Assembly: GCA_964017185.1 (NCBI GenBank)
Contig: OZ024882.1
Span: 44,065,431-44,129,430, forward strand
Source of the DNA: Rugalucina vietnamica
Lineage: Eukaryota; Mollusca; Bivalvia; Lucinida; Lucinidae
Direction of reading: 5' to 3'
Length of the DNA: 64,000 nucleotides
The notes below the pieces were generated by a model. It did not search any database. It worked only from the letters and a program-made list of their open reading frames with translations, and was not told where the DNA came from. The position numbers and the translations under genes are program-made. Within the stretch, counting starts at the first letter, position 1. Every line of letters begins with the position of its first letter. Below, one piece after another: positions 25,618-63,710 of the stretch.

Positions 25618-26850
25618 TCACTCGTCAGTAGGCGTAGCCTGATTTAGGTCAGTGTCAGGGTGGCTAGCACTACAACAGCAACCAAAGAGACGCAGCAGCT
25701 GCTCTCTGAACTCTGCGTTGCTTAAGTAGAAAGCTATGTTTATCGAGTGGTTGATCTGACAGGCTGCCACAAGGATCAGTAGCATGATCTGATTTGAGGC
25801 ATTGCCATCATTCCCACCCATACGCAAAACCGCGTTTACTACTGTAGGCACACCAACGAGTATGATGTAAGCTACGGCAATGCCGATCAGCATTGCCGTT
25901 GTGCGGATCAGTCGGGCAGCATCCTCTTTGGTTGCCTGACGGGCTCTTATAGCCTGTCGTTGACTGATTTTGAATATGATGACAGGGGTGAGAGACAGCA
26001 ATACCACCAAAGGTATAGCAGTGATTAGAGCAATCATCATAAAACGAAGGCTGATGTGAGCCAATGTTGTATGTGCACTGGCGTCAAGTTTGCAGATGCC
26101 ATCCTCGATTTCCGAGTACTGGCTTGAGGCTACGACACCAGCAAAGATTGCGACACCACCACATACACACAGTGATATGATTCTGGCATTTCTAGACACA
26201 ACACGTTTGTACTGTAGAGGATACTTGACTGCTATGAACCTATCAATGCATATCAATGCAGTGATATAGGCAGCATTGGTTTTCATAATCAAGTCAACGG
26301 CCATAAAGACGGTACAGCCTATGTCCGCCATTGCCCTTGCGTCAAAATTAAAAACCATTGGTGAAGGCAGCAAATGAAAGGAGTTGGTTACCAAAACTCC
26401 AATGTTGGTGATTGCGAGAACTACTACCAACAGAGTGTGTGTCTTCAACTCTTTGGCAGATCGCAGCATTACAATGACTCCTGCTGTGTTGCCAAACAGA
26501 CCAAACGCCAAGAACAAGGCATTTATCCCAAGCATTGAGTAAGTCAGCACAGGGGATGAAATTTGATCATTGGTGCTGAGCGCATTTCTACTTACGTTAC
26601 GTAAGTAAATGGACGAGATGTTGAGGCCAGTGTCATTTGTTAAGACGTCATTGTCTGTCCAGGTCTCTGGCGTTGTGTAGGCTGTTGTTTGTCCTACTCC
26701 ATCTTCACTTGTCAAGTTCTCCGGTGAGATGTAGGCAGTTGTGAGTTCTACTCCATTCTCACTTGTCCAGTTCTTTGACCAGGTTACGTTAGGAGGAAAA
26801 TTCATTCCGTTTGTTACTGGCCACGATGTATTGGTTGTTGACATATGCAT
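25618..26850 (-). CDS. Rhodopsin-family (class A) G-protein-coupled receptor
   Basis: A 410-residue single coding exon for a plasma-membrane receptor. The N-terminus (1-100) has seven N-glycosylation sequons (N7, N21, N27, N45, N72, N77, N85) and a tandem 18-residue repeat at 30-65 (SENGVELTTAY, then SEDGVGQTTAY). Seven membrane segments are visible: about 105-129 (GN at 120-121), 138-160, 176-207 (C179, DRF at 203-205), 223-243, 264-292 (P280), 316-340 (P335) and 353-377 (NIAFY for NPxxY). C253 can pair with C179. The tail has CCC at 391-393, a likely palmitoylation site. Variant motifs: DRF for DRY, LAITN for LAxxD, no tryptophan in TM6. The ligand is unknown; an orphan peptide-type receptor is plausible. 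A splice acceptor (TTTATTTATAG) ends 4 bp before the ATG, so the 5' UTR is split. Confidence 0.93.
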   Translation of the reverse strand: MHMSTTNTSWPVTNGMNFPPNVTWSKNWTSENGVELTTAYISPENLTSEDGVGQTTAYTTPETWTDNDVLTNDTGLNISSIYLRNVSRNALSTNDQISSPVLTYSMLGINALFLAFGLFGNTAGVIVMLRSAKELKTHTLLVVVLAITNIGVLVTNSFHLLPSPMVFNFDARAMADIGCTVFMAVDLIMKTNAAYITALICIDRFIAVKYPLQYKRVVSRNARIISLCVCGGVAIFAGVVASSQYSEIEDGICKLDASAHTTLAHISLRFMMIALITAIPLVVLLSLTPVIIFKISQRQAIRARQATKEDAARLIRTTAMLIGIAVAYIILVGVPTVVNAVLRMGGNDGNASNQIMLLILVAACQINHSINIAFYLSNAEFREQLLRLFGCCCSASHPDTDLNQATPTDE

Positions 26851-26865
26851 TCTCCTATAAATAAA
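26851..26865 (-). promoter_or_regulatory. Splice acceptor just upstream of the GPCR start
   Basis: On the minus strand TTTTATTTATAG is followed by GAGA and the start codon. It supports at least one non-coding 5' exon at higher coordinates. Confidence 0.6.
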
Positions 26866-26914
26866 ATCATGAAAAAAATAACAGTTCTTATTTACAAGTT
26901 ATCATATTGTTATA

Positions 26915-51933: not shown

Positions 51934-51940
51934 TAAGTTA

Positions 51941-52134
51941 TCAAAGTTTATTGCTCCCTATGGGAAATTCACACACCCAACCGTATCTACTCTTTACAAG
52001 CCCACCAAGGGTTGAGTCACAGGTATAGTCGTGCCAATATCCTGAGTCCCCGTGGTCCATTATCGCACAGTCTTCCCACCCATATACCATGCCTGGTTGG
52101 TCCGTAGCCCAGTTGGTATAAGTTGTTGGTTCAC
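51941..52134 (-). CDS. Lectin exon 4 (C-terminal half of the domain)
   Basis: Acceptor ATGATTATTACAG. Encodes EPTTYTNWATDQPGM to the stop, with C131, C147, C163 and the WHD motif. Enters in phase 1. Confidence 0.95.
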
Positions 52135-52286: not shown

Positions 52287-55200
52287 GGATTATTATTTTC
52301 GGACGAAGTTGCATTCTGTTTTGTCATGTATATAATCCAAATCCATATTAATTTGCTGGTTTCACGTTTTCCGTTATGAACCACTGCAGAAGCTGAGGGT
52401 GAGGTTAGGTACCTGTAAAACCGATTTAAGCCTGCCAGTAACTTTGTGTTACTGGTCGTTCCAAGTCGATACTTCTGTGGTGGTTCTTTTTGTTTTATTT
52501 CTTGGTGTTTAAAATTTTTTTGTGCTGTTGGCGCCTTAAATATGTTTTCATATTTTTAGTTAAGTTAAGGTAACTGAGTGGCCACCTATTGGGAAAATAG
52601 CTGCTCATTCGGCTTACGATATGTTTCATGGTATAAGTACCTGATTGTTAGTTTGTTTTTTTCCAACCTCGGTTGGGAATCTTTTCCTGATCTTTGCCTA
52701 CTTGTACCTTTCCATTTATCAATATTGGAAATCCAGGTAACCAATAAAATCCCCTCAGTTAGCCATTGGTCAATACTGGACACACCTTCAAATATTGACC
52801 AATGACTAACTGAGGGGGTATTACTGGTTACCTGGTTTTCTATAATTGATTATTTGTAAGCTGGAAACCAGCAATTAATGTAGATATAATGTATTCTTAA
52901 TTAACGTTTGGCTTATTGCATTGATATAGCAATGTACATTGATACATGTAATAATGCGAATCTTAAGCTGCCACATATATGCACCCGTAAAAATCGGAAA
53001 CTGATATTAACTGATATAACTACTTACATCAATGAGGACCAATAATGGGTACCTACATCTAGTCATACCAGGCGTATCTTACGTGTTTTGAGAAAAAAGT
53101 AGACGTCTTTTTATTTTGTACGGTTTAAGAAAACTCTTTGCATTTGAGCCGCCTCGTGGGAAAACCAACAATGTGGTTTCCGATCAGGTCTGACACAAAC
53201 CGGCCTGTACACGCACAGAAAAGAGCTAGAAGCTTGAAATTTCGGATTTAAGTAGAAGAGGAATAGTACTATCCGAGTAGCGAAAACAAAGGCGCTGATC
53301 AGCTTCGCGGTTACCGCGAAGCTGATCTGCGTCTTTGTTTTCGCCTATGCAGATTGTTGGTTTTCCCATGAGGCGGCTCATTTCATGATCGTGTTTTCTT
53401 AATACATACCAGAAGCCCACTGCCACTTCCCCTCCTGATCCCCATCTCCGTCAGAGTAACCGATCCAGACATCTTGAAGTTTGTTTAGGAGCTGAAATTG
53501 AAACATTTTAGGGTCAGGCGAGCGTTTAGGAGCTGAAATTGAATCATAATAGGATCAGGTGAGAGTTGAGGAGCTGTGATGTAATAATGCCAGGTTCAGA
53601 TGAGAGTTGAGGAGCTGTAATGTAATAATGCCAGGTTCAGATGAGAGTTCAGGAGCTCTAATGTAATACTGCCAGGTTCAGATGAGAGTTGAGGAGCTGT
53701 AATGTAATAATGCCAGGTTCAGATGAGAGTTAATAATGCCAGGTTCAGATGAGAGTTGAGGAGCTGTAATGTAATAATGCCAGGTTCAGATGAGAGTTGA
53801 GGAGCTGTAATGTAATAATGCCAGGTTCAGATGAGAGTTGAGGAGATGTAATGTAATAATGCCAGGTTCATATGAGAGTTGAGGAGCTGTGATGTAATGA
53901 TGTCAGGTTCAGATGAGAGTTGAGGAACTGTAATGTAATAATGCCAGGTTCAGATGAGAGTTGAGGAGCTGTAATGTAATAATGCCAGGCTCAGATGAGA
54001 GTTGAGGAGCTGTAATGTATTAATGCCAGGTTCAGATGAGAGTTGAGGAGCTGTGATGTAATGATGCCAGGTTCAGATGAGAGTTGAGGGGCTGTAATGT
54101 AATAATGCCAGATTCAGATGAGAGTTGAGGAGCTGTAATGTAATAATGCCAGGTTCAGATGAGAGTTGAGGAGGTGTAATGTAATAATGCCAGGTTCAGA
54201 TGAGAGTTGAGCAGCTGTAATGTAATAATGCCAGGTTCAGATGAGAGTTGAGGAGCTGTGATGTAATAATGCCAGGTTCAGATGAGAGTTGAGGAGCTGT
54301 AATGTAATAATGCCAGATTCAGATGAGAGTTGAGGAGCTGTAATGTAATAATGCCAGGTTCAGATGAGTGTTGAGGAGGTGTAATATGAGAGTTGAGGAG
54401 GTGTAATGTAATAATGCCAGGTTCAGATGAGAGTTGAGGAGCTGTGATGTACATGTAATAATGCCAGGTTCAGACGAGAGTTAAGGAGCTGTAATTTAAT
54501 AATGCCAGGTTCAGATGAGAGTTAAGGAGCTGTATTGTAATGTAATAATGCCAGGTTCCAGATGAGAGTTAAGGAACTGTATTGTAATAATGCCAGGTTC
54601 AGATGTGAGTTAAGGAGCTGTATTGTAATAATGCCAGGTTCAGATGTGAGTTAAGGAGCTGTATTGTAATAATACCAGGTTCAGATGAGAGTTGAGGAGC
54701 TGTGATGTAATAATGTCAGGTTCAGATGAGAGTTGAGGAGCTGTAATTTAATAATGCCAGGTTCAGCTCCATTCTACCAACCACTAGAATGCCATGATAC
54801 TCAAAATGGGATTGAAGGCATAACCACTCAAGTAAACAGCCAACTTGAGGGAAATGTTGTTTAAACTTAAACGCCTTAAATGTTCACCCATTTAACTGAT
54901 TACATTGTCAACACTGTTTGTGGTACTGGAAATTAAAGTACTCGTATCTATCAGTTTCTCGTCTCTGAATACGTGCTAATAAAAAGCAACATTTTTTGTT
55001 TCGAAAGGGTTTAGCCGTTTGTTTCGATCGCTCAGTTGACGCAAATAACAACCGAGGCTACATATTGTCTGTCAAGAAGCAACATTAGGTGTAAAATTAT
55101 CCTATATCACCCTTGATTAAAATCATGTTATCAGGAAAAGAAAACATGAATTACTAATTAATTATATAATATCTAGTGCTTGATTAATTATTAATAAATG

Positions 55201-58200
55201 AAATGTTACAGATTGCGAGGTACATGGCATGCCAATAGAAATGAATGGACTACTAGTCTCGGTGATAACACACGTGTAAATGATATCAAATTTCGGTTTT
55301 GAATATAGATAGTGCAAAAACCGGTGACTCGACCGAGAATGAGTCCTTTAGACGAAAAAACAAGTGGGATTGAGACTGCTAGTCTCCACAAAATCTAAAA
55401 ATGACGATGACAAAAGCTCTGAGTTCGACAAACGGTTACTAGACCGAGGGGATGTGCCGTGCCAAGGGAAACCTTTGTTTGTGGTTAGACACGAAAAGAT
55501 CTGGCAGGTCCACGAGAAAGGCAGGAAGATTAAAAAAAGGTTAAAGTAGACAATCATCAGGAAATGGCGCAATCAGAAATAAATTCCCACTCAACAAACC
55601 GAGGGGTGGGGAAAAAACGAGGATAATGTATACTGTAAATTATTTCACAAATTACTTACACAAACGGCACCAGAAATTTTTCGAACTTAGGATTGGTCCG
55701 AAATGTTAAATTTCTAAAACGTCACTAAAATGTACGAAAATGATAGCTTGCACGGAGTTTGCCTCTCGGGTTTTTATCAAAACAGCGCAAGGGTTATTAC
55801 CTTAGCTCATCAGAACAGCGCAAACTATGCTCATCGATACAGCGCAACATATTTGGGCAATTATCCAATTGTTATCGTAATCACTAGTGATTTTCTACGT
55901 GAGCGCGTCTGATAGTTCGTCTCTCACTAATGAGAAAGACCATCATTATTTCTTGAATAGTGCTGATGTGTGTTGGTGAGTTCTTTGATGGCTGACTAGG
56001 CCAATTCTGGCTCTAATCTGTCGGTTGCAAGTAGAGCAAGTCAATGTCATAGAGTCTGATGGTGGCACATTTGTTTTGGCTTTGCGCTCTCTTCGCTTTC
56101 TTTCAGCTTCACAGATTCTCTTCTTTTCAGAAAGAGCTGCTCCTTTGTTGATGAGACCTCACCACTTTGATCGCTCCTGTGCAGTCTGTTCCCAGGACCC
56201 CATTGGTATTTCGAAATCCTTCAGAGAGGCTTTGAGGGTGTCTTTGTAGCGTTTCTTCTGGCCACCTTGAGAGCGCTTTCCCTCCTGTAGTTCTCCATAG
56301 AAAACTTTCTTTGGAAGTCGCGCATCAGGCATTCTTATAACATGGCCAGTCCATCTTAGCTGTGCTAGCTTTAAGACTGTATGCATGCTTTGCATCCCTG
56401 CTTTCATCAGGACCTCTGTGTCTGGAATCTTGTCCTGCCACTTGATTTTTAACAACTTTCTCAAACAGCTTAAGTGGAAATGGTTAAGTCTCTTTGCATG
56501 GCGTTGGTATACTGTCCAGGTCTCACATGCATACAAGAGGGTTGGCAGTACCACAGCCTTGTAGACTTTCAGCTTGGTGTCAAGCTTGATTCCATTTCGC
56601 TCCCAGACATTTGCACGGAGTCGTCCGAATGCCACACTAGCCTTTGCAATTCTGGCAGTGATCTCATCATCAATATGCACTGCTCTGGAGAGAGTGCTTC
56701 CCAGGTAGGTGAACTTGTCAACAACTTTCAGTTTTTGCCCATTCACAGTGATGGTTGGTTCATTATATGGCTTTCCGGGCGCTGGTTGGTGTACAACCTC
56801 TGTCTTTTTTGTGCTGATTGTGAGATCATAGTTATCACATGACTGTGAGACTTGATCCATGGCTCTTTGCATTTTTGCCTCTGTGCTGGCATTCTTATCC
56901 ATATCATCTGCATAGAGGAGCTCATCTAGCACATCAGTCTGGACCTTAGTTTTGGCTTGCAACCTTCTGAGGTTGAATATGTTGCCATCAAAACGGTACC
57001 TGATTGGAAAACCAGTGTCACTGTCCTGAAAAGCATCCATAAGCATGGCAGAAAACATCATGCTGAACAGTGTTGGTGCCAGAACACAGCCTTGTTTGAC
57101 CCCATTTGTTACTTCAAATGGTTCAGAGAACTCTCCATCATTTTGCACACGTGCCTGCATGCCATCATGAAACTGCCGCGCCATTGCTATGAATCTGGGT
57201 GGACAGCCAAACTTGGCCATGATTTTCCAGAGTCTATCACGACTAACAGTGTCAAAAGCTTTGGTGAGGTCAACAAACGTCATGTATAGATCTACATTCT
57301 GTTCTTGGCATTTCTCCTGAAGCTGTCTTGCTGTGAATATCATGTCTATTGTCCCTCTGTCTTTTCTGAATCCACATTGACTTTCTGGGATAAGTCCCGT
57401 CTGATCAAGATGAACATTCAGACGATTCAACAGAATTTTTGCAAGTATCTTCCCAGCAATTGATAGGAGGGAGATGCCTCTGTGATTGTCACAGACTTGA
57501 GGATTTCCTTTCCGCTTGTATAGGTGGATTATGGATGCATCCTTAAATTCTTGTGGGATAGCCTCCTTTCTCCACATACAGTGAAACAACTCTGTCAGTT
57601 TCTCTGCCATGGGTAGCCCCCCAGCCTTGTAAATTTCGGCAGGAATTGCATCTGCACCTGGGGCTTTGCCAGATGATAGTTGTTGAACTGCTTTTCTTGT
57701 TTCCGTAACGGTAGGAAACAGACCTGGGTTAATCTTAATCGTTAATCATGACTACTTTTATTCGATTGAAATTTTTATCAATCGAAAATTATTCTTTAAT
57801 CGTAGATTTTTGCGATTAAAATTAATCTTATTCTTATTCGAATACTTTTCAAAATGCCTGTAATCGTGATTGATTTTATGATTAAATTTCGATTACATTC
57901 CAAGACGTGCTGAAAATTCTTTTTCTGAAAAAAAAGAGAGTAAAAGAAAGAAAGTAAATTAAATAAATTAATATCTAAAATTATGTTCACAACAAGAATT
58001 CTGTGATTTTCAAGAATTTTAATATATCAAATGGGAATTCTGATAAGGTAACAGATCAGACTGTGCAGAGTGCCATTATTTTTGGCTTTTATCTCTAAAT
58101 GTGAAGAAAAAAAAAAAGAAAAAAAAAAACAAACAAAAAAACAGCATTTTCTATATGAAAATGACATGGGCACATCATAAGGATGCATACTGGTCAACAA

Positions 58201-61200
58201 ATTTAACATTTTTATATTTTTCTTGTCCGCTTTGTGTATTTTTTATCGAAATTCTGGCATTTTCCATATCATTTCAGAACTCTTCTTAGAACACTCCTTT
58301 TTTGCTTACAGTTCTTTGACCTATGATCATGCTTAGAAACATACGGTATTACCTCATTCTAAATGTTTTGAAACCTATTGCAAAAGTTAAAACCTATTGT
58401 TACCTGGTTGTTCACACCTTTACAGGTTAACTTATAAACATGTGTCATATGTAGTAGTCATATGGTTTGTGGTGTCAAAACACTCTAGAACAAGTTAGTG
58501 ACAATATACAAAGGATTAACAGAATCAATCTATAGAGAGACCATGACAGAATCAACAACTTTGAGAGTCATATTACAAAATTGATGACAAAATGACTGCA
58601 ACATTCAAATCAAGTAACATTTTTGTCCAATTTGGAGTTGTTTGCCAAATTATAAACACACACGCAGCATCATGAGACCTAAAATTATGTTTATGATTCA
58701 CTGTTTTGTAAAGACTACAATCTGAAGATAAAGTGCCCAATAAACCAAGAGGATTCCTATATGCCAACATAATACCATATACAGTTAAATCATAACTGCG
58801 TAATTCAAGACTGGCTGGATTATAAATGCAAAACTAATCGATTGATTATTCGATTACTTTTGCAAATCAATTGTAATTGTAATCGATTACATTGTGGAAA
58901 AAAATATTTTTAATTGTAATCGTTAATCGTAAGATTGAAAGTAATTGTAATCGTTAGTGATTAACTTTGAAAGTAATCGATAACAGGTCTGGTAGGAAAT
59001 TCATCTAACAGAACATTGCACTCTATCTGTGGAAGTCTGTCGATTGCATCCTCATTGATGCTTGATGGTCGATTAAGCACACTATTGAAGTGTTCTGCCC
59101 ACCTTTCCAAGATAGCTTCTTTATCTGTGAGAAGAGTGTTTCCATCTGCACTGAGCAATGTGGTGGCTCCAGAACTCTTTGGACCATAAATGGTTTTCAG
59201 TGCATCATGAAATTTCTTCATGTCCTTTCTATCCGCAAAAGACTGAATTTCTTCTGTTTTCTTCCTCAGCCAGGAATCTTGCATGTCCCTAAGCTTGGTC
59301 TGGACTGTCTTACAAATGTTGCTGTAGGCTGCTTTCTTTGATACTGAGCTAGTATCATCTTGATGTGCCTTGTACAATCGGTGCTTTTCTTCAAGAAGCC
59401 TCTGAATTTCGTCATCATTCTCATCAAACCAGTCTTGATGTTTGCGAGATGGATGGCCTAAGGTGCTTGCAGCTGAAGAAAGAACTGTTTTATGGAAAAC
59501 TGTCCAGTTTTCTTCGGGGTCCTCTGAACTGAGATTCATTGCATCCAGTTGGTTGCAAATGTCTGTTAAGAAATCTTGTCTCATGCTGTCTTTATTCAGC
59601 TTTGAGACATCCAGTCTCTTAAGAGCTTTCTTGCCTTGAGGTCGCCTCGCAGGCTGTATTCTTAGGTTGAGTTTGCTGAAAACCAGTCTATGATCTGTCC
59701 AGCAGTCTGCACCACACATAGTCTTTGTCACTTTAACATCCTGCCTGTCTGTTCTCCGCACTATGACATAGTCTATGAGATGCCAGTGTTTGGAACGGGG
59801 ATGCATCCAGGATGTTTTGTTCCTATTAGGTAGACGGAAGACTGTGTTGGTGATTAGAAGGTCATGTTCAGCACACTTCCTGAGAAGCAAGAGACCATTG
59901 CTGTTGCACTTTCCAACCCCTTCTGGACCTATAACTCCTTCCCAGGTCTGGTGGTCTGTACCCACTCTGGCATTAAAGTCGCCAAGAAGGATAAGCTTGT
60001 CTGTGCGGGGTGTTGCAGAAATAACATTGTCTAGGTCATCATAGAACTTGTCTTTGACCTCATCTGGATTGGTCATTGTGGGTGCATAAGCACTGACAAT
60101 AGTTGCATGTTTATTGCCTGACAGAGGAAGTCTCAATGTCATTAGACGGTCATTAATGCCTTTTGGCAATCCTGACAGCTTACCAACAAGTTCTGTTTTG
60201 ATGGCAAAGCCAACTGCTTCACGCCTCTCTTCACTTTTGCGTCCACTCCAGAAGAAGGTGTATCCAGCACCAACTTCTTTGATCTCCCCAACATCTGCGA
60301 ACCGAGTCTCACTCAATGCAGCTATCTGTATATCATACCTCCCAAGTTCTCTGCCCACAAGGGCCGTTCTACGCTGTGGTCTATCTGACCCAGCATTGTC
60401 CATTAAAGTACGCACAATCCATGCGCCAATCCGTAAGGGAAATTGAGAAATAAGATGACATGCGCTATGAAATCGGATTATAGTGAGGAAGAGGTACGCA
60501 ACGTCAACCTCACTCTCTAGTCCTCGCCCAGCTGCGCCCAGAGGCAAGACACAGGTCAAGACGTCTGGAGTTGGGTTTGGATGCAGTGGATGACCGTAAC
60601 ATCTTTAGTGCCTTGTCACGCTCTGCATGTTCCACAACATGTTGCTGTATCGCTTTCTGTGAGCGCGTCTACCTGAGTGGTGAAAAACTAAGCTTGGTGG
60701 CTTGATGGCTTGGTGACCCATGGTGTCACTTGGCTTATATCCTTCACTGCGCATCTAACAGTGCAAGCTTGCAGATTTTTTTTTAAAATCATTGAGCCAA
60801 TGATGCCCCCTCCCATGAACTTGTACACTAAAAGGACAATCTGACATTTTATGTGTACATGTACATACATGAGATTTTAAAACATCAACACAAATATCCT
60901 GCTCAACTTCCACCTCCCCGCGGTGAGCAGGGGGCAATGGATAATACAGAAACATACAGACAGTTTCTATATTTTTTCTCTATAATACGGCTAATGAATA
61001 ATCAAGCTAATTTTAATGAATAAATGATAGAGGATAAAGAGTTAACCAGAAATAACTTTTATTGATCAGTGAATACAGGACCCCCATCAAGACAGACACC
61101 AAACTATGCATTGTTCAACAGGTTTGTGAAAAATACCTCCAAAACCCCACTTTTACATACTAAATCTTTGGTATACTGGGATATACAGTTTTTTTTTATT

Positions 61201-62718
61201 TTTGTTAAAAAACACAGATTGGGGGCATTCGCTAGCTACTAGAAACCACATCGCTCTAACATACAGATATGAGCAACGTTATTAAAATATCAACTTTTTT
61301 TCCATTGAAATTTTTTAATTTTGCATCTTTAAAATCTCTGTGTATTGCATGGGGATATTTTCAGAATAATAGCATTGAACTAACCTGTAGACCTCTGAAC
61401 ACATCAGCCTGTTCTGATGCACTGTTGATCGACACAAGGTAACCTCCCCTTATTTTACAGTTTGAATCCGCATAGTTCCAGCTTTCTGTGTGATCAAGAT
61501 GGTATTCGTAACAGCTCGCGCCGAACTGCATAAGGTTCTGGTTTCTCGGTAGATTTGGTGGACATCGGTCGAGACTGGCGATAGCTTGAACAGGAAATAA
61601 AAATGCAGTGTTAATACAAAATGTTTATCGTAAAAATGTAAGTACGAGGGACGTTTAAATTGTTCGTGGAAAAGTGCTGCCAATTTGTTAATTTTCATGG
61701 GAAATTCACGATCTCTGTGCATGTTATAACATAATGTTAACATATGCACAAAATTAAAAAAAAATCGAATGAAAATTAAGCATTAAATCGTGTGCGTACA
61801 TGTATATAGGATTACAACAGTAAAACTGGCGCAACGTCGTAACAACGTCATGCTATATGCATCCATCCCTTTTGTTTCTAGCTCTTAATCATTTTAGAGT
61901 CCATCTGGCACACATGTACGACATCTGGTTGTCTACCGTGGCGAATTTTGTCGAAACTACAGCTCGTTATATTGTGTTATTCATTCACAAATTCTACACT
62001 TTTATGTCACGACGATCATTTTCGACATTATGACGTTATTTGACGTTACACTGCCTGGGTCGACATGGACGCTTTTCTGGCCATCTAGAAATCATGTACA
62101 CTAATTGTAGATTGCCGTTTTCGTAATTTCCATGTCGCCATATGCGTTTCCTGCTCTAAGCGGCGCTTCATTCTATAAATACCAAAACATAATGTTTGAA
62201 GACCGTTGTTTCCAGCGCATTGTAGGCATGCTTAATAAACATTATGGCCGCATTACGCCTAAATGACGTCACACACAAGATGTCATGCGCTTACCGCCAA
62301 CATATTGAACTTTACTCATACAGAGTTTGGTGAAAATAACACGATAAACTATCAAATTCAACGGCATTATTAAACATCGACTTTTTGTCAGCTTTAAGAT
62401 GGTCAAAAATGGACCGGTAAATGTGATGGTTTCCATAGCAACCACTTTAAAATTGTATGCATGCCCGAGCAGCAAAATGTTCTGTTTATGTACAAATTAT
62501 GTTTGTCTATATAATTGTACGAATTTAATTCAGCTGATTTACAAAGTAAGACCATGACGGTACTTTTCCGCGAAGACCCTTCGTAATATAGATGCAAATC
62601 GGTGTAAATGTGCAGACAACCCACAAAACACAAAAATACAAACATGCAAACATGAGAAAAAAGAGAACACATTACCACATCCTATAAACGACGACAGCAA
62701 AATGAAAGTAAAGGCCAT
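51941..62718 (-). CDS. Secreted C-type lectin, four exons (172 residues)
   Basis: Coding exons 62718-62676, 61584-61385, 53491-53410 and 52134-51941 join to 519 bp with intron phases 1, 0, 1 and all GT/AG borders. Residues 1-15 are a signal peptide. The rest is one long-form C-type lectin domain with six cysteines: C22-C39 (N-terminal hairpin), C57-C163 and C131-C147. Family marks: WNYADSNC at 50-57, VWIG at 89-92, a DGDGD run at 95-99, EPT at 110-112 where EPN or QPD is usual, WHD at 142-144 where WND is usual, and WVCE near the end. It would act outside the cell in glycan recognition or innate defence, but the changed calcium-site residues leave sugar binding open. The start has a good context (A at -3, G at +4). 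Introns 2 and 3 are full of mobile DNA. Confidence 0.93.
52172..52286. repeat. (AAT)n running into (ATT)n
   Basis: About 24 AAT units switch at 52246 to about 13 ATT units, so the tract is self-complementary. It lies about 40 bp into intron 3, near the acceptor of exon 4. Confidence 0.95.
52374..52712 (+). mobile_element. Family C repeat, reference copy, in lectin intron 3
   Basis: TTATGAACCACTGCAGAAGC to CCTACTTGTACCTTTCC, about 340 bp. The internal GGTTTTTGGAGTGG block is shortened here. Confidence 0.85.
52717..52850. repeat. 62-bp-arm hairpin in lectin intron 3
   Basis: CCAGGTAACCAATAAAATCC and CCTCAGTTAGCCATTGGTCA pair with TGACCAATGACTAACTGAGG and GTTACCTGG around a loop of about 12 bases. 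Mismatches are few. It abuts the family C copy. It may be a small foldback MITE. Confidence 0.85.
53145..53380. mobile_element. Family B MITE, full length, in lectin intron 3
   Basis: TGAGCCGCCTCGTGGGAAAA to TTTTCCCATGAGGCGGCTCA, inner palindrome around GCTTCGCGGTTACCGCGAAGC. It ends only about 20 bp downstream of the exon 3 donor. ATTT occurs on both sides, a possible target duplication. Confidence 0.93.
53410..53491 (-). CDS. Lectin exon 3
   Basis: 82 bp between acceptor GTTTCAATTTCAG and donor GTATGTATT. Encodes LLNKLQDVWIGYSDGDGD and QEGKWQWASG, the WIG core of the fold. Phase 0 in, phase 1 out. Its first bases (CTCCTAAAC) are also the start of each unit of the adjoining minisatellite. 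Confidence 0.95.
53492..54775 (-). repeat. 41-bp minisatellite made of the exon 3 splice-acceptor region
   Basis: About 30 units of CTCCTCAACTCTCATCTGAA plus CCTGGCATTATTACATTACAG (minus strand). The unit touching exon 3 is the working acceptor with its branch-like CTGAC 22 bases before the AG. The next unit keeps TTTCAATTTCAG, and units further away have drifted to ATTACATTACAG. One local deletion lies near 53725 and one near 54385. Confidence 0.9.
54780..55540. other. Lectin intron 2, unassigned part
   Basis: No repeat family recognised. AT-rich around 55130-55205. The short frame at 55364-55549 has no support as a gene. Confidence 0.4.
55548..55612 (-). mobile_element. Family C fragment
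   Basis: CAATCATCAGGAAATGGCGC and AAACCGAGGGGTGGG, the inverse of the family C 3' part. Confidence 0.65.
55915..55945 (-). other. LINE 3' terminal hairpin
   Basis: GTCTTTCTCATTAGTGAGAGAC folds into a stem with a TTAG loop. It is identical in all three LINE 3' ends of the window and may be the site recognised by the reverse transcriptase. Confidence 0.6.
55946..56158 (-). pseudogene. LINE ORF2 C-terminal zinc finger beyond an in-frame TGA
   Basis: After the TGA that ends the RT frame, the same frame stays open for about 70 codons to a TAA: GLINKGAALSEKKRICEAER and onward, then a C2H2 finger CSTCNRQIRARIGLVSHQRTH (Cx2Cx12Hx3H). RTE-type ORFs often end in such a finger. The TGA replaces what would be an Arg codon. 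Confidence 0.7.
56156..57718 (-). pseudogene. LINE ORF2, reverse-transcriptase part
   Basis: From the hAT insertion (codons for FPT shared by the target duplication) to the TGA, about 520 codons without another stop. RT marks in order: SSGKAPGADAIPAEIYKAGG, ASIIHLYKRKG, RGISLLSIAGKILAKILLNR, QCGFRKDRGTIDMIF, FVDLTKAFDTVSR, GVKQGCVLAPTLF, LLYADDM (catalytic YADD) and the thumb FTYLGST. The palm looks intact. The part is cut off from its nuclease half by the insertion. Confidence 0.9.
57719..58991. mobile_element. hAT-like non-autonomous DNA transposon inside the LINE
   Basis: 1273 bp with terminal inverted repeats CAGACCTG and CAGGTCTG, flanked by GTAGGAAA at 57711-57718 and 58992-58999. An eight-base duplication and CAG ends point to hAT. 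Both ends carry TAATCGATTA-like words (57734-57850, 58840-58985). No transposase frame is seen. Removing it with one flank copy restores the LINE reading frame. Confidence 0.9.
58992..60559 (-). pseudogene. LINE ORF2, endonuclease part
   Basis: About 520 codons open from the ATG at 60559 to the insertion point. Apurinic-endonuclease-type marks: RIGAWIVRTL (the usual WNVRTL has Asn, here Ile, a likely loss of a catalytic residue), ALSETR (Glu), LLGDFNARVG (Asp and Asn), HLIDYV and CWTDHRLV (Asp-His pair). After the nuclease, a linker with coiled character runs to LNRPSSINEDAIDRL. The preceding 100 bp is the 5' leader. Confidence 0.9.
60671..61115. other. Lectin intron 2, unassigned part
   Basis: No family recognised. 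Contains GCTTGGTGGCTTGATGGCTT and an AT-rich segment. Confidence 0.4.
61120..61372 (-). mobile_element. Family A MITE, diverged, next to the exon 2 donor
   Basis: CCAAAACCCCACTTTTACAT, GGTATACTGGGATATACAG, AAACACAGATTGGGGGCATT, TGCATGGGGATATTTTCAGA. The core is lost. Its end is about 12 bp from the lectin exon 2 splice donor at 61384. Confidence 0.7.
61385..61584 (-). CDS. Lectin exon 2
   Basis: 200 bp between acceptor TTTATTTCCTGTTCAAG and donor GTTAGTTC. Encodes IASLDRCPPNLPRN to SEQADVFRGLQ, the N-terminal half of the lectin domain with C22, C39 and C57. Confidence 0.95.
61590..62670. other. Lectin intron 1
   Basis: About 1.09 kb, the only lectin intron with no recognised mobile element. 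Short frames at 62269-62475 and 62403-62678 are not supported as genes. Confidence 0.5.
62676..62718 (-). CDS. Lectin exon 1 (signal peptide)
   Basis: 43 bp: MAFTFILLSSFIGC plus one base, donor GTAATGTG. Hydrophobic core FTFILLSSFIG. Start context AAACGATGG. Confidence 0.88.
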
Positions 62719-62964: not shown

Positions 62965-63710
62965 CAACATTGAATCTCATTACATCCCAGTAGTGTCTAT
63001 TATACTATTTAAAAGTAATAATCGAATGCACAGCCCAGATACCTGTCAACATGGAATTTCATTATACATTTATCCCAGTAATTTCCATTATACTGAAGTA
63101 ATAAACATAAAAAGGCACGGAAATTGTAAAATTAAATTCAATTTCCCACCCCAGACACCTGCTAACATGGAATTTCATTATGCATTTATCCTAGTAATTT
63201 CCATTATACTAAAGTAAAAATAAAAGGCACAGAATTGAAAATCCCAGCCCAGATACCTGCTAACATGGAATTTCAATATACATTTATCCCAGTAGTGTCC
63301 ATTAGACTAAAGTAAAAATAAAAGGCACAGAAATTGTAAGATCAAATTCAAAATCACAGCCCAGATACCTGCTAACATGGAATCTAATTATGCATTTATC
63401 TCAGTAGTGTCCATTAGACTAAAGTAAAAATAAAAGGCACAGAAATTGTAAAATGAAATTCAAAATCACAGCCCAGATACCTGCTAACATGGAATCTCAT
63501 TATGCATTTATCCCAGTAGTGTCCATTAGACTAAAGTAAAAATAAAAGGCACAGAAATTGTAAGATCAAATTCAAAATCACAGCCCAGATACCTGCTAAC
63601 ATGAAATCTCATTATGCATTTATCCCAGTAGTGTCCATTAGACTAAAATAAAATAAAAGGCACAGAAATTGTAAAATCAAATTCAAACTTCCAGCCCAGA
63701 TACCAGACGG
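62965..63710 (+). repeat. Tandem array, unit about 112 bp, upstream of the lectin
   Basis: About 6.5 units with CAGCCCAGATACCTGCTAAC, ATGCATTTATCCCAGTAGTG and TAAAAATAAAAGGCACAGAA. The spacing of the CCCAGATACC word is 111-118 bp with one 97-bp unit. Units at the left end are most diverged. Confidence 0.93.

What the first reader, a model, noticed from the sequence alone, without database searches (positions are those of the whole stretch)
53410..54775. Minisatellite built from the lectin's own 3' splice site: about 30 tandem acceptor-like units
On the gene strand the 41-bp unit begins with the first bases of exon 3 (CTCCTNAAC) and ends in a CAG acceptor. The exon-adjacent unit is the working acceptor, including a branch-like CTGAC 22 bases upstream of AG. 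The next unit still has TTTCAATTTCAG, and farther units drift to ATTACATTACAG. This suggests repeated duplication of the intron-exon border away from the exon. Each unit offers a decoy branch point and AG. Using the neighbouring AG would add 41 bp and run into a stop within 16 codons, giving a truncated secreted product, so copy number could tune splicing of an immune-type lectin.
Basis: partly seen in the sequence, partly recalled or inferred. Interest (0 to 1): 0.82.

Follow-up and report, generated by a model that had tools for sequence, protein, structure and literature searches.

The report
Minisatellite copied from lectin splice border
In this animal genome a C-type lectin gene carries about thirty tandem copies of its own intron-exon border just upstream of exon 3, a real but already described kind of repeat (called mirages in amphioxus) that most likely spreads by slippage and is tolerated rather than used as a splicing switch.

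Summary
On the minus strand 30 units (26 of 41 bp) run from 54740 to 53492, after a partial copy at 54766-54741. The last unit ends in the predicted exon 3 acceptor, and the exon's first 9 nt continue the repeat. The 20-nt border TTCAATTTCAG|CTCCTAAAC occurs twice on that strand, 41 bp apart. In the 1.09-Gb genome all 27 pattern matches lie in this array. The gene is an intact predicted four-exon, 172-aa secreted C-type lectin. Six of eight paralog genes examined keep the same intron; none of the six has an array across the border.

This fits minisatellites duplicating intron-exon borders, called 'mirages' in amphioxus, where splicing appeared undisturbed. IFI6 is a donor-side precedent. So it is a new member of a known kind, probably in a mollusc (weak inference).

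The regulatory reading is untested: there is no RNA. Decoys are plausible but weak; none of 26 outscores the working acceptor. All 30 registers stop early, 75 nt or more before the exon 3 donor, so decay is likelier than a secreted fragment. Most likely: slippage-born, nearly neutral, with minor unproductive use of the neighbouring AG.

The parts
62676..62718 (-). predicted coding exon 1 of the lectin: ATG and signal-peptide-like MAFTFILLSSFIGC
   Evidence: Spliced translation gives an intact 172-aa protein; sequence read. No RNA.
61385..61584 (-). predicted exon 2 of the lectin (200 nt)
   Evidence: own-genome protein match
56159..60604 (-). non-LTR retrotransposon remnant inside intron 2 (two ORFs: 58961-60604 endonuclease, 56159-57745 reverse transcriptase)
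   Evidence: Pfam RVT_1 2e-33; Exo_endo_phos 2.5e-07
54741..54766 (-). partial far-end copy of the 41-bp unit
53492..54740 (-). minisatellite, 30 units of about 41 bp in the register of the intron-exon border
   Evidence: only locus found in the genome
53533..53573 (-). unit 29: intermediate copy, ends in a near-identical copy of the working acceptor (AG at 53534-53533)
53492..53532 (-). unit 30: predicted working acceptor unit with CTGAC branch-like site and AG at 53493-53492
   Evidence: frame and paralogs
53410..53491 (-). predicted exon 3 (82 nt); its first 9 nt continue the repeat
51940..52134 (-). predicted exon 4 of the lectin, up to and just past the stop codon
   Evidence: own-genome protein match

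Best explanation
It is a 'mirage'-type minisatellite. A short segment holding the last about 32 nt of intron 2 and at least the first 9 nt of exon 3 was tandemly duplicated, by slippage or unequal exchange (inferred), and expanded upstream into the intron to about 30 copies. The copy beside the exon kept the working acceptor because it must be used, while interior copies homogenised and drifted from TTTCAATTTCAG to ATTACATTACAG (gradient shown; cause inferred). The lectin is normally spliced at 53493-53492 (inferred). Occasional use of the near-identical AG at 53534-53533 would add 41 nt, shift the frame and give a transcript expected to be degraded. The array is therefore nearly neutral, with perhaps a small cost to lectin output.
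For: Units, register and gradient. Only locus found in the genome. Intact lectin frame. Same intron position and phase, read by eye, in 6 of 8 paralog genes examined, none of the six with an array across the border. The final G of the unit varies in 3 of 24 full-length interior units, against a column mean of 0.83, and is one of the 4 most variable of 41 columns. The working acceptor (1.90) scores above all 26 AG-bearing decoys. All 30 upstream registers, 4 of them without an AG, meet a stop within 41 codons, 75 to 1271 nt before the exon 3 donor. Amphioxus mirages are reported to leave splicing undisturbed (passages read).
Against: No RNA was available, so normal splicing is inferred. 18 of 26 decoys score at or above the gene's own exon 4 acceptor (-0.87), and the working acceptor is not outstanding (5.7% of the 3277 AGs scored on that strand of the window do as well). 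12 of 14 paralog acceptors score higher than it. The A of the AG varies in 0 of 24 units, though 22 of 41 columns in all do not vary. A paralog's exon 3 acceptor reads TCATTACAG, close to the array's ACATTACAG. Direction of growth is not proven, since edge copies of any array diverge.
Confidence: 0.78

Rival explanations
1. The order was reversed: an unrelated intronic minisatellite grew up to the exon, and the acceptor and first codons of exon 3 were taken over from its last unit.
For: Exon 3 is two or three codons shorter before the conserved VWIG than in the six paralogs, and its first codons (LLN) differ from all six, though three share the second L. The divergence of units 29-30 can be an ordinary edge effect.
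Against: Intron position and phase are the same in the six paralogs. Only 9 nt of exon continue the repeat. At the far end units 1-4 stay 93-95% like the consensus while unit 30 falls to 68%. The array sequence was found nowhere else in the genome.
Confidence: 0.12
2. Regulatory decoy array: competing acceptors divert a copy-number-dependent share of transcripts into unproductive splicing, tuning lectin output between individuals.
For: The neighbouring AG has an almost identical context. 18 of 26 decoys score no worse than the gene's exon 4 acceptor. All registers give early stops. A loose branch motif is present in 30 of 30 units. Human IFI6 is reported to use repeat units as splice donors.
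Against: 4 of 30 units have lost the AG. No sign of conservation of decoy signals beyond the rest of the unit. No ortholog could be examined. Amphioxus counterparts are reported to splice normally.
Confidence: 0.07
3. Repressor platform: the CU-rich part of each unit (14 of the first 17 consensus bases are pyrimidines; CTCTC in 26 of 30 units) binds a PTB-like protein and promotes skipping of exon 3, which shifts the frame.
For: Pyrimidine content 63% and motif counts; exon 3 is 82 nt, not a multiple of 3.
Against: No binding or expression data; the motif is part of the duplicated unit and needs no selection. PTB preference is recalled, not tested.
Confidence: 0.03

Closest known systems
Mirages: minisatellite-like repeats spanning intron-exon boundaries in amphioxus Adh3, globins BflGb6 and BflGb9, and TnC; PGBD5 repeats are likened to them (PMC3087553 and PMC3902484, passages read; the Adh paper, PMC117041, is not held)
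   Same: Tandem repeat of an intron-exon boundary, acceptor side in BflGb6; many units hold splice signals; homogenised interior and distinct edge units; unit size within the 10-72 bp given for Adh3.
   Different: Different host (probably a mollusc), 30 units against 3 or 6 in BflGb6, only 9 nt of exon continuing the repeat, a C-type lectin gene. Length polymorphism, somatic instability and RT-PCR were not testable here.
Human IFI6 (6-16) minisatellite supplying several splice donors (Turri et al. 1995: title only, in reference lists; use of repeat units as donors from the introduction passage of PMC4526556)
   Same: Tandem units at an exon border each offer a splice site in an immune-related gene.
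   Different: Donor side, with use of repeat units as alternative sites reported; here acceptor side, no evidence of use, and frame-breaking registers.
Intron gain by tandem genomic duplication (PMC4974935, listing and start of abstract only)
   Same: Tandem duplication can create extra splice signals (general knowledge).
   Different: Here six paralogs share intron 2 without the array; the array lengthens an existing intron.

Membership tests
mirage-type minisatellite | tandem repeat whose unit contains an intron-exon boundary of its gene | tested here: met
   20-nt border TTCAATTTCAG|CTCCTAAAC present twice, 41 bp apart, in register with the 30 units; the exon border itself is predicted
mirage-type minisatellite | interior units homogenised, a boundary unit excluded from homogenisation | tested here: met
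   full-length interior units 90-100% like the consensus; units 29 and 30 at 78% and 68%
mirage-type minisatellite | normal splicing despite duplicated splice signals | not testable with these tools
   no RNA data
mirage-type minisatellite | length instability between alleles or tissues | not testable with these tools
   one assembled copy only
C-type lectin gene | Lectin_C domain in an intact reading frame | tested here: met
   PF00059 7.1e-17, 62.5 bits against a cut-off of 22.6; intact spliced frame
regulated splice-site minisatellite (IFI6-like) | repeat units used as alternative splice sites in mRNA | not testable with these tools
   no RNA; sequence alone gives plausible but weak decoys
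intron gained by tandem duplication | the intron is absent from close relatives and made of the repeat | tested here: not met
   intron at the same position and phase in 6 of 8 paralog genes examined, without the array. Other, mostly more distant matches span this point in one frame, so the intron is not universal in the family.

The most novel reading that the evidence does not exclude
The array is a length-variable splicing rheostat: more acceptor copies divert more pre-mRNA into degraded frames, so individuals differ in secreted lectin dose through array length.
Probability: 0.06. Interest if true: 0.7.

Novelty: new member of a known kind. Interest (0 to 1): 0.34.

Why it matters
It extends intron-exon-border minisatellites, which the papers found here describe in amphioxus, to what is probably another animal group and to an immune-type gene. 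It also offers a clean natural test of how the spliceosome chooses among many near-copies of one acceptor.

Tried and rejected
Intron gain through the repeat (the model proposed for amphioxus globins) was considered and rejected for this intron: six paralogs share it without the array. A dispersed or transposon origin of the unit was rejected: a whole-array search found only this locus, and a 30-nt pattern with up to 3 mismatches matched 27 times, all inside it; the tool warns that DNA searches skip very common words. RNA families at the gathering threshold and tRNAs: none in the window. Exon 2 acceptors of paralogs were listed but left out of the score comparison because their exon starts were ambiguous. 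The splice matrix was recalled, not species-trained. An inverted-repeat listing of the gene region (25 of 44 pairs shown) gave nothing bearing on the array. My notebook entry calls a long mitochondrial frame cox2; Pfam did not bear that out, and the report follows.

Literature searches used: 8 of 10. 'mirage' + 'minisatellite' + 'amphioxus' gave 2 papers, with 'splice' in place of 'amphioxus' 3. A mollusc-oriented search held 72 papers, 12 listed, with no such case among those 12 titles. Papers not held are not excluded. Turri 1995 and Canestro 2002 are not held.

Full report
What is there. On the minus strand the window holds a predicted four-exon secreted C-type lectin gene: exon 1 at 62718-62676, exon 2 at 61584-61385, exon 3 at 53491-53410, exon 4 at 52134-51940. 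Joined, they give an intact 172-residue protein with a signal-peptide-like start and a Lectin_C domain at 7.1e-17. Exon limits come from frame, GT/AG and paralogs; there is no RNA. Intron 2 is 7,893 nt. It contains two ORFs of a non-LTR retrotransposon (RVT_1 2e-33; endonuclease 2.5e-07) and, at its 3' end, the array.

The array. Thirty units run from 54740 to 53492, after a partial copy at 54766-54741; 26 of 30 are exactly 41 bp. Unit 30 ends in the acceptor of exon 3, and exon 3 starts with nine nucleotides that continue the repeat. The 20-nt border TTCAATTTCAG|CTCCTAAAC is present exactly twice on this strand of the window, 41 bp apart. Unit 29 is intermediate: 34/41 to unit 30 and 32/41 to the interior consensus, while unit 30 is 28/41 to the consensus; 1 of 5000 shuffles of unit 30 did as well. 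Full-length interior units are 90-100% like the consensus. Three limits apply: the outer end is 54766; 4 of 30 units lack the AG; and the working site's CTGAY is kept at its place only in units 29 and 30, although some loose YTNAY motif is present in 30 of 30 units.

Where it came from. A search of the 1.09-Gb genome with the array found only this place, and a 30-nt unit pattern with up to three mismatches found 27 matches, all inside it. The lectin has many relatives in the genome (102 exon-level matches, a lower bound). I examined eight paralog genes. Six (L032, two in L033, L034, L035, L036) have an intron at the same position and phase before the VWIG motif, as I read it by eye; two (L037) lack it. 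Other, mostly weaker matches also run across this point in one frame, so the intron is a feature of part of the family. None of the six has a tandem array across the border. TRF was run on 33 of 37 loci then held (4 showing the window's own gene were dropped; several of the 33 overlap). One paralog, L035, has a 19-bp, 2.7-copy repeat ending a few bases inside the same intron. The intron is thus most simply older than the array, and the array grew in this gene. Growth away from the exon is the simplest reading of the gradient. It is not proven, because edge copies of any array diverge, and slippage between two pre-existing short direct repeats would look the same.

Does it work as a splicing device? 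With a recalled acceptor matrix the working site scores 1.90. None of 26 AG-bearing decoys reaches that; 18 of 26 score at least as high as the gene's own exon 4 acceptor at -0.87. The working site is itself unremarkable: 5.7% of 3277 AGs on that strand of the window score as high, and 12 of 14 paralog acceptors (6 of exon 3, 8 of exon 4, picked by frame; range -1.58 to 5.62) score higher. Decoys are thus plausible but weak. The final G of the unit varies in 3 of 24 full-length interior units, above the column mean of 0.83; only 4 of 41 columns vary that much. The A before it varies in none, like 21 other columns. I see no sign that decoys are maintained. All 30 upstream registers, 4 of which have no AG, stop within 41 codons, 75 to 1271 nt upstream of the exon 3 donor. 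By the usual 50-nt rule (recalled) such transcripts would be degraded, so a secreted truncated lectin is unlikely. Early stops in every register are also what a 41-bp unit, read in all three frames in turn, would give by itself.

What is known. Amphioxus genes carry minisatellite-like repeats that duplicate intron-exon boundaries, called mirages. In globin BflGb6 the 3' end of an intron and the start of exon 2 are repeated 6 or 3 times in two haplotypes. Interior units are homogenised and boundary units are excluded. Adh3 data and globin RT-PCR suggest regular splicing (PMC3087553, passages read; PMC3902484, passage read). On the donor side, human IFI6 is reported to use repeat units as splice donors (PMC4526556 introduction passage; title of Turri et al. 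in reference lists). The present array meets the anatomical features of a mirage and differs in copy number, in how much exon is included and in host.

Host. The genome has 47 contigs. A 30,680-bp contig is mitochondrial. Its COX1 frame holds 9 TGA. In the 20,000 bases examined, COX1, COX2, COX3 and one NADH dehydrogenase frame are all on one strand, while long frames at L039:3659-4945 and L040:480-1001, which begin alike, match no Pfam family. From general knowledge, a large one-strand mitochondrial genome with extra frames suggests a bivalve mollusc and not an amphioxus. This is a weak inference, not an identification.

How surprising. The window has 19 separate TRF arrays of period 10 or more, some of them simple repeats read at a longer period. 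At such density some arrays in a genome of this size should overlap exon borders by chance, and any that does must look like this one (inference, not tested genome-wide). The finding is real, tidy and useful as a test case, but of a known kind.

Noticed in passing
L019:1755-3339 (C17): Another C-type lectin-like gene has a 43-nt stretch of its coding exon repeated downstream (35 of 43 identical; score 46 against a maximum of 27 in 2000 shuffles), followed by a 75-bp, about 18-copy minisatellite. Similarity of the unit itself to the exon did not exceed shuffles (22 against a maximum of 26).
   Followed up: partly
L035:1636-1686 (C8): A paralog has a 19-bp, 2.7-copy tandem repeat forming the pyrimidine-rich stretch right before its exon 3, at the same intron as the window's array.
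   Followed up: partly
window 63233-63704: A 112-bp, 4.2-copy array lies about 500 bp upstream of the lectin's first coding exon.
   Followed up: no
window 25618-26898 (-): A rhodopsin-family GPCR in a single open frame of 426 codons (7tm_1 1.9e-17).
   Followed up: partly
window 53140-53385: Intron 3 begins with a fold-back element: a 31-nt end TGAGCCGCCTC...ACAATCTG recurs inverted with 29 of 31 identical, around a palindromic centre read; it looks like a small DNA transposon relic.
   Followed up: partly
window 52708-52860: A second inverted repeat in intron 3: 73-nt arms, 81% complementary, 7 nt apart.
   Followed up: no
L039:3659-4945 and L040:480-1001 (C47): The 30,680-bp mitochondrial contig has a 429-codon frame without a Pfam match, whose beginning recurs in a second, shorter frame.
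   Followed up: partly
L037 (C2): Two tandem lectin paralogs lack the exon 2/3 intron that six other paralogs have: loss or gain within the family.
   Followed up: partly
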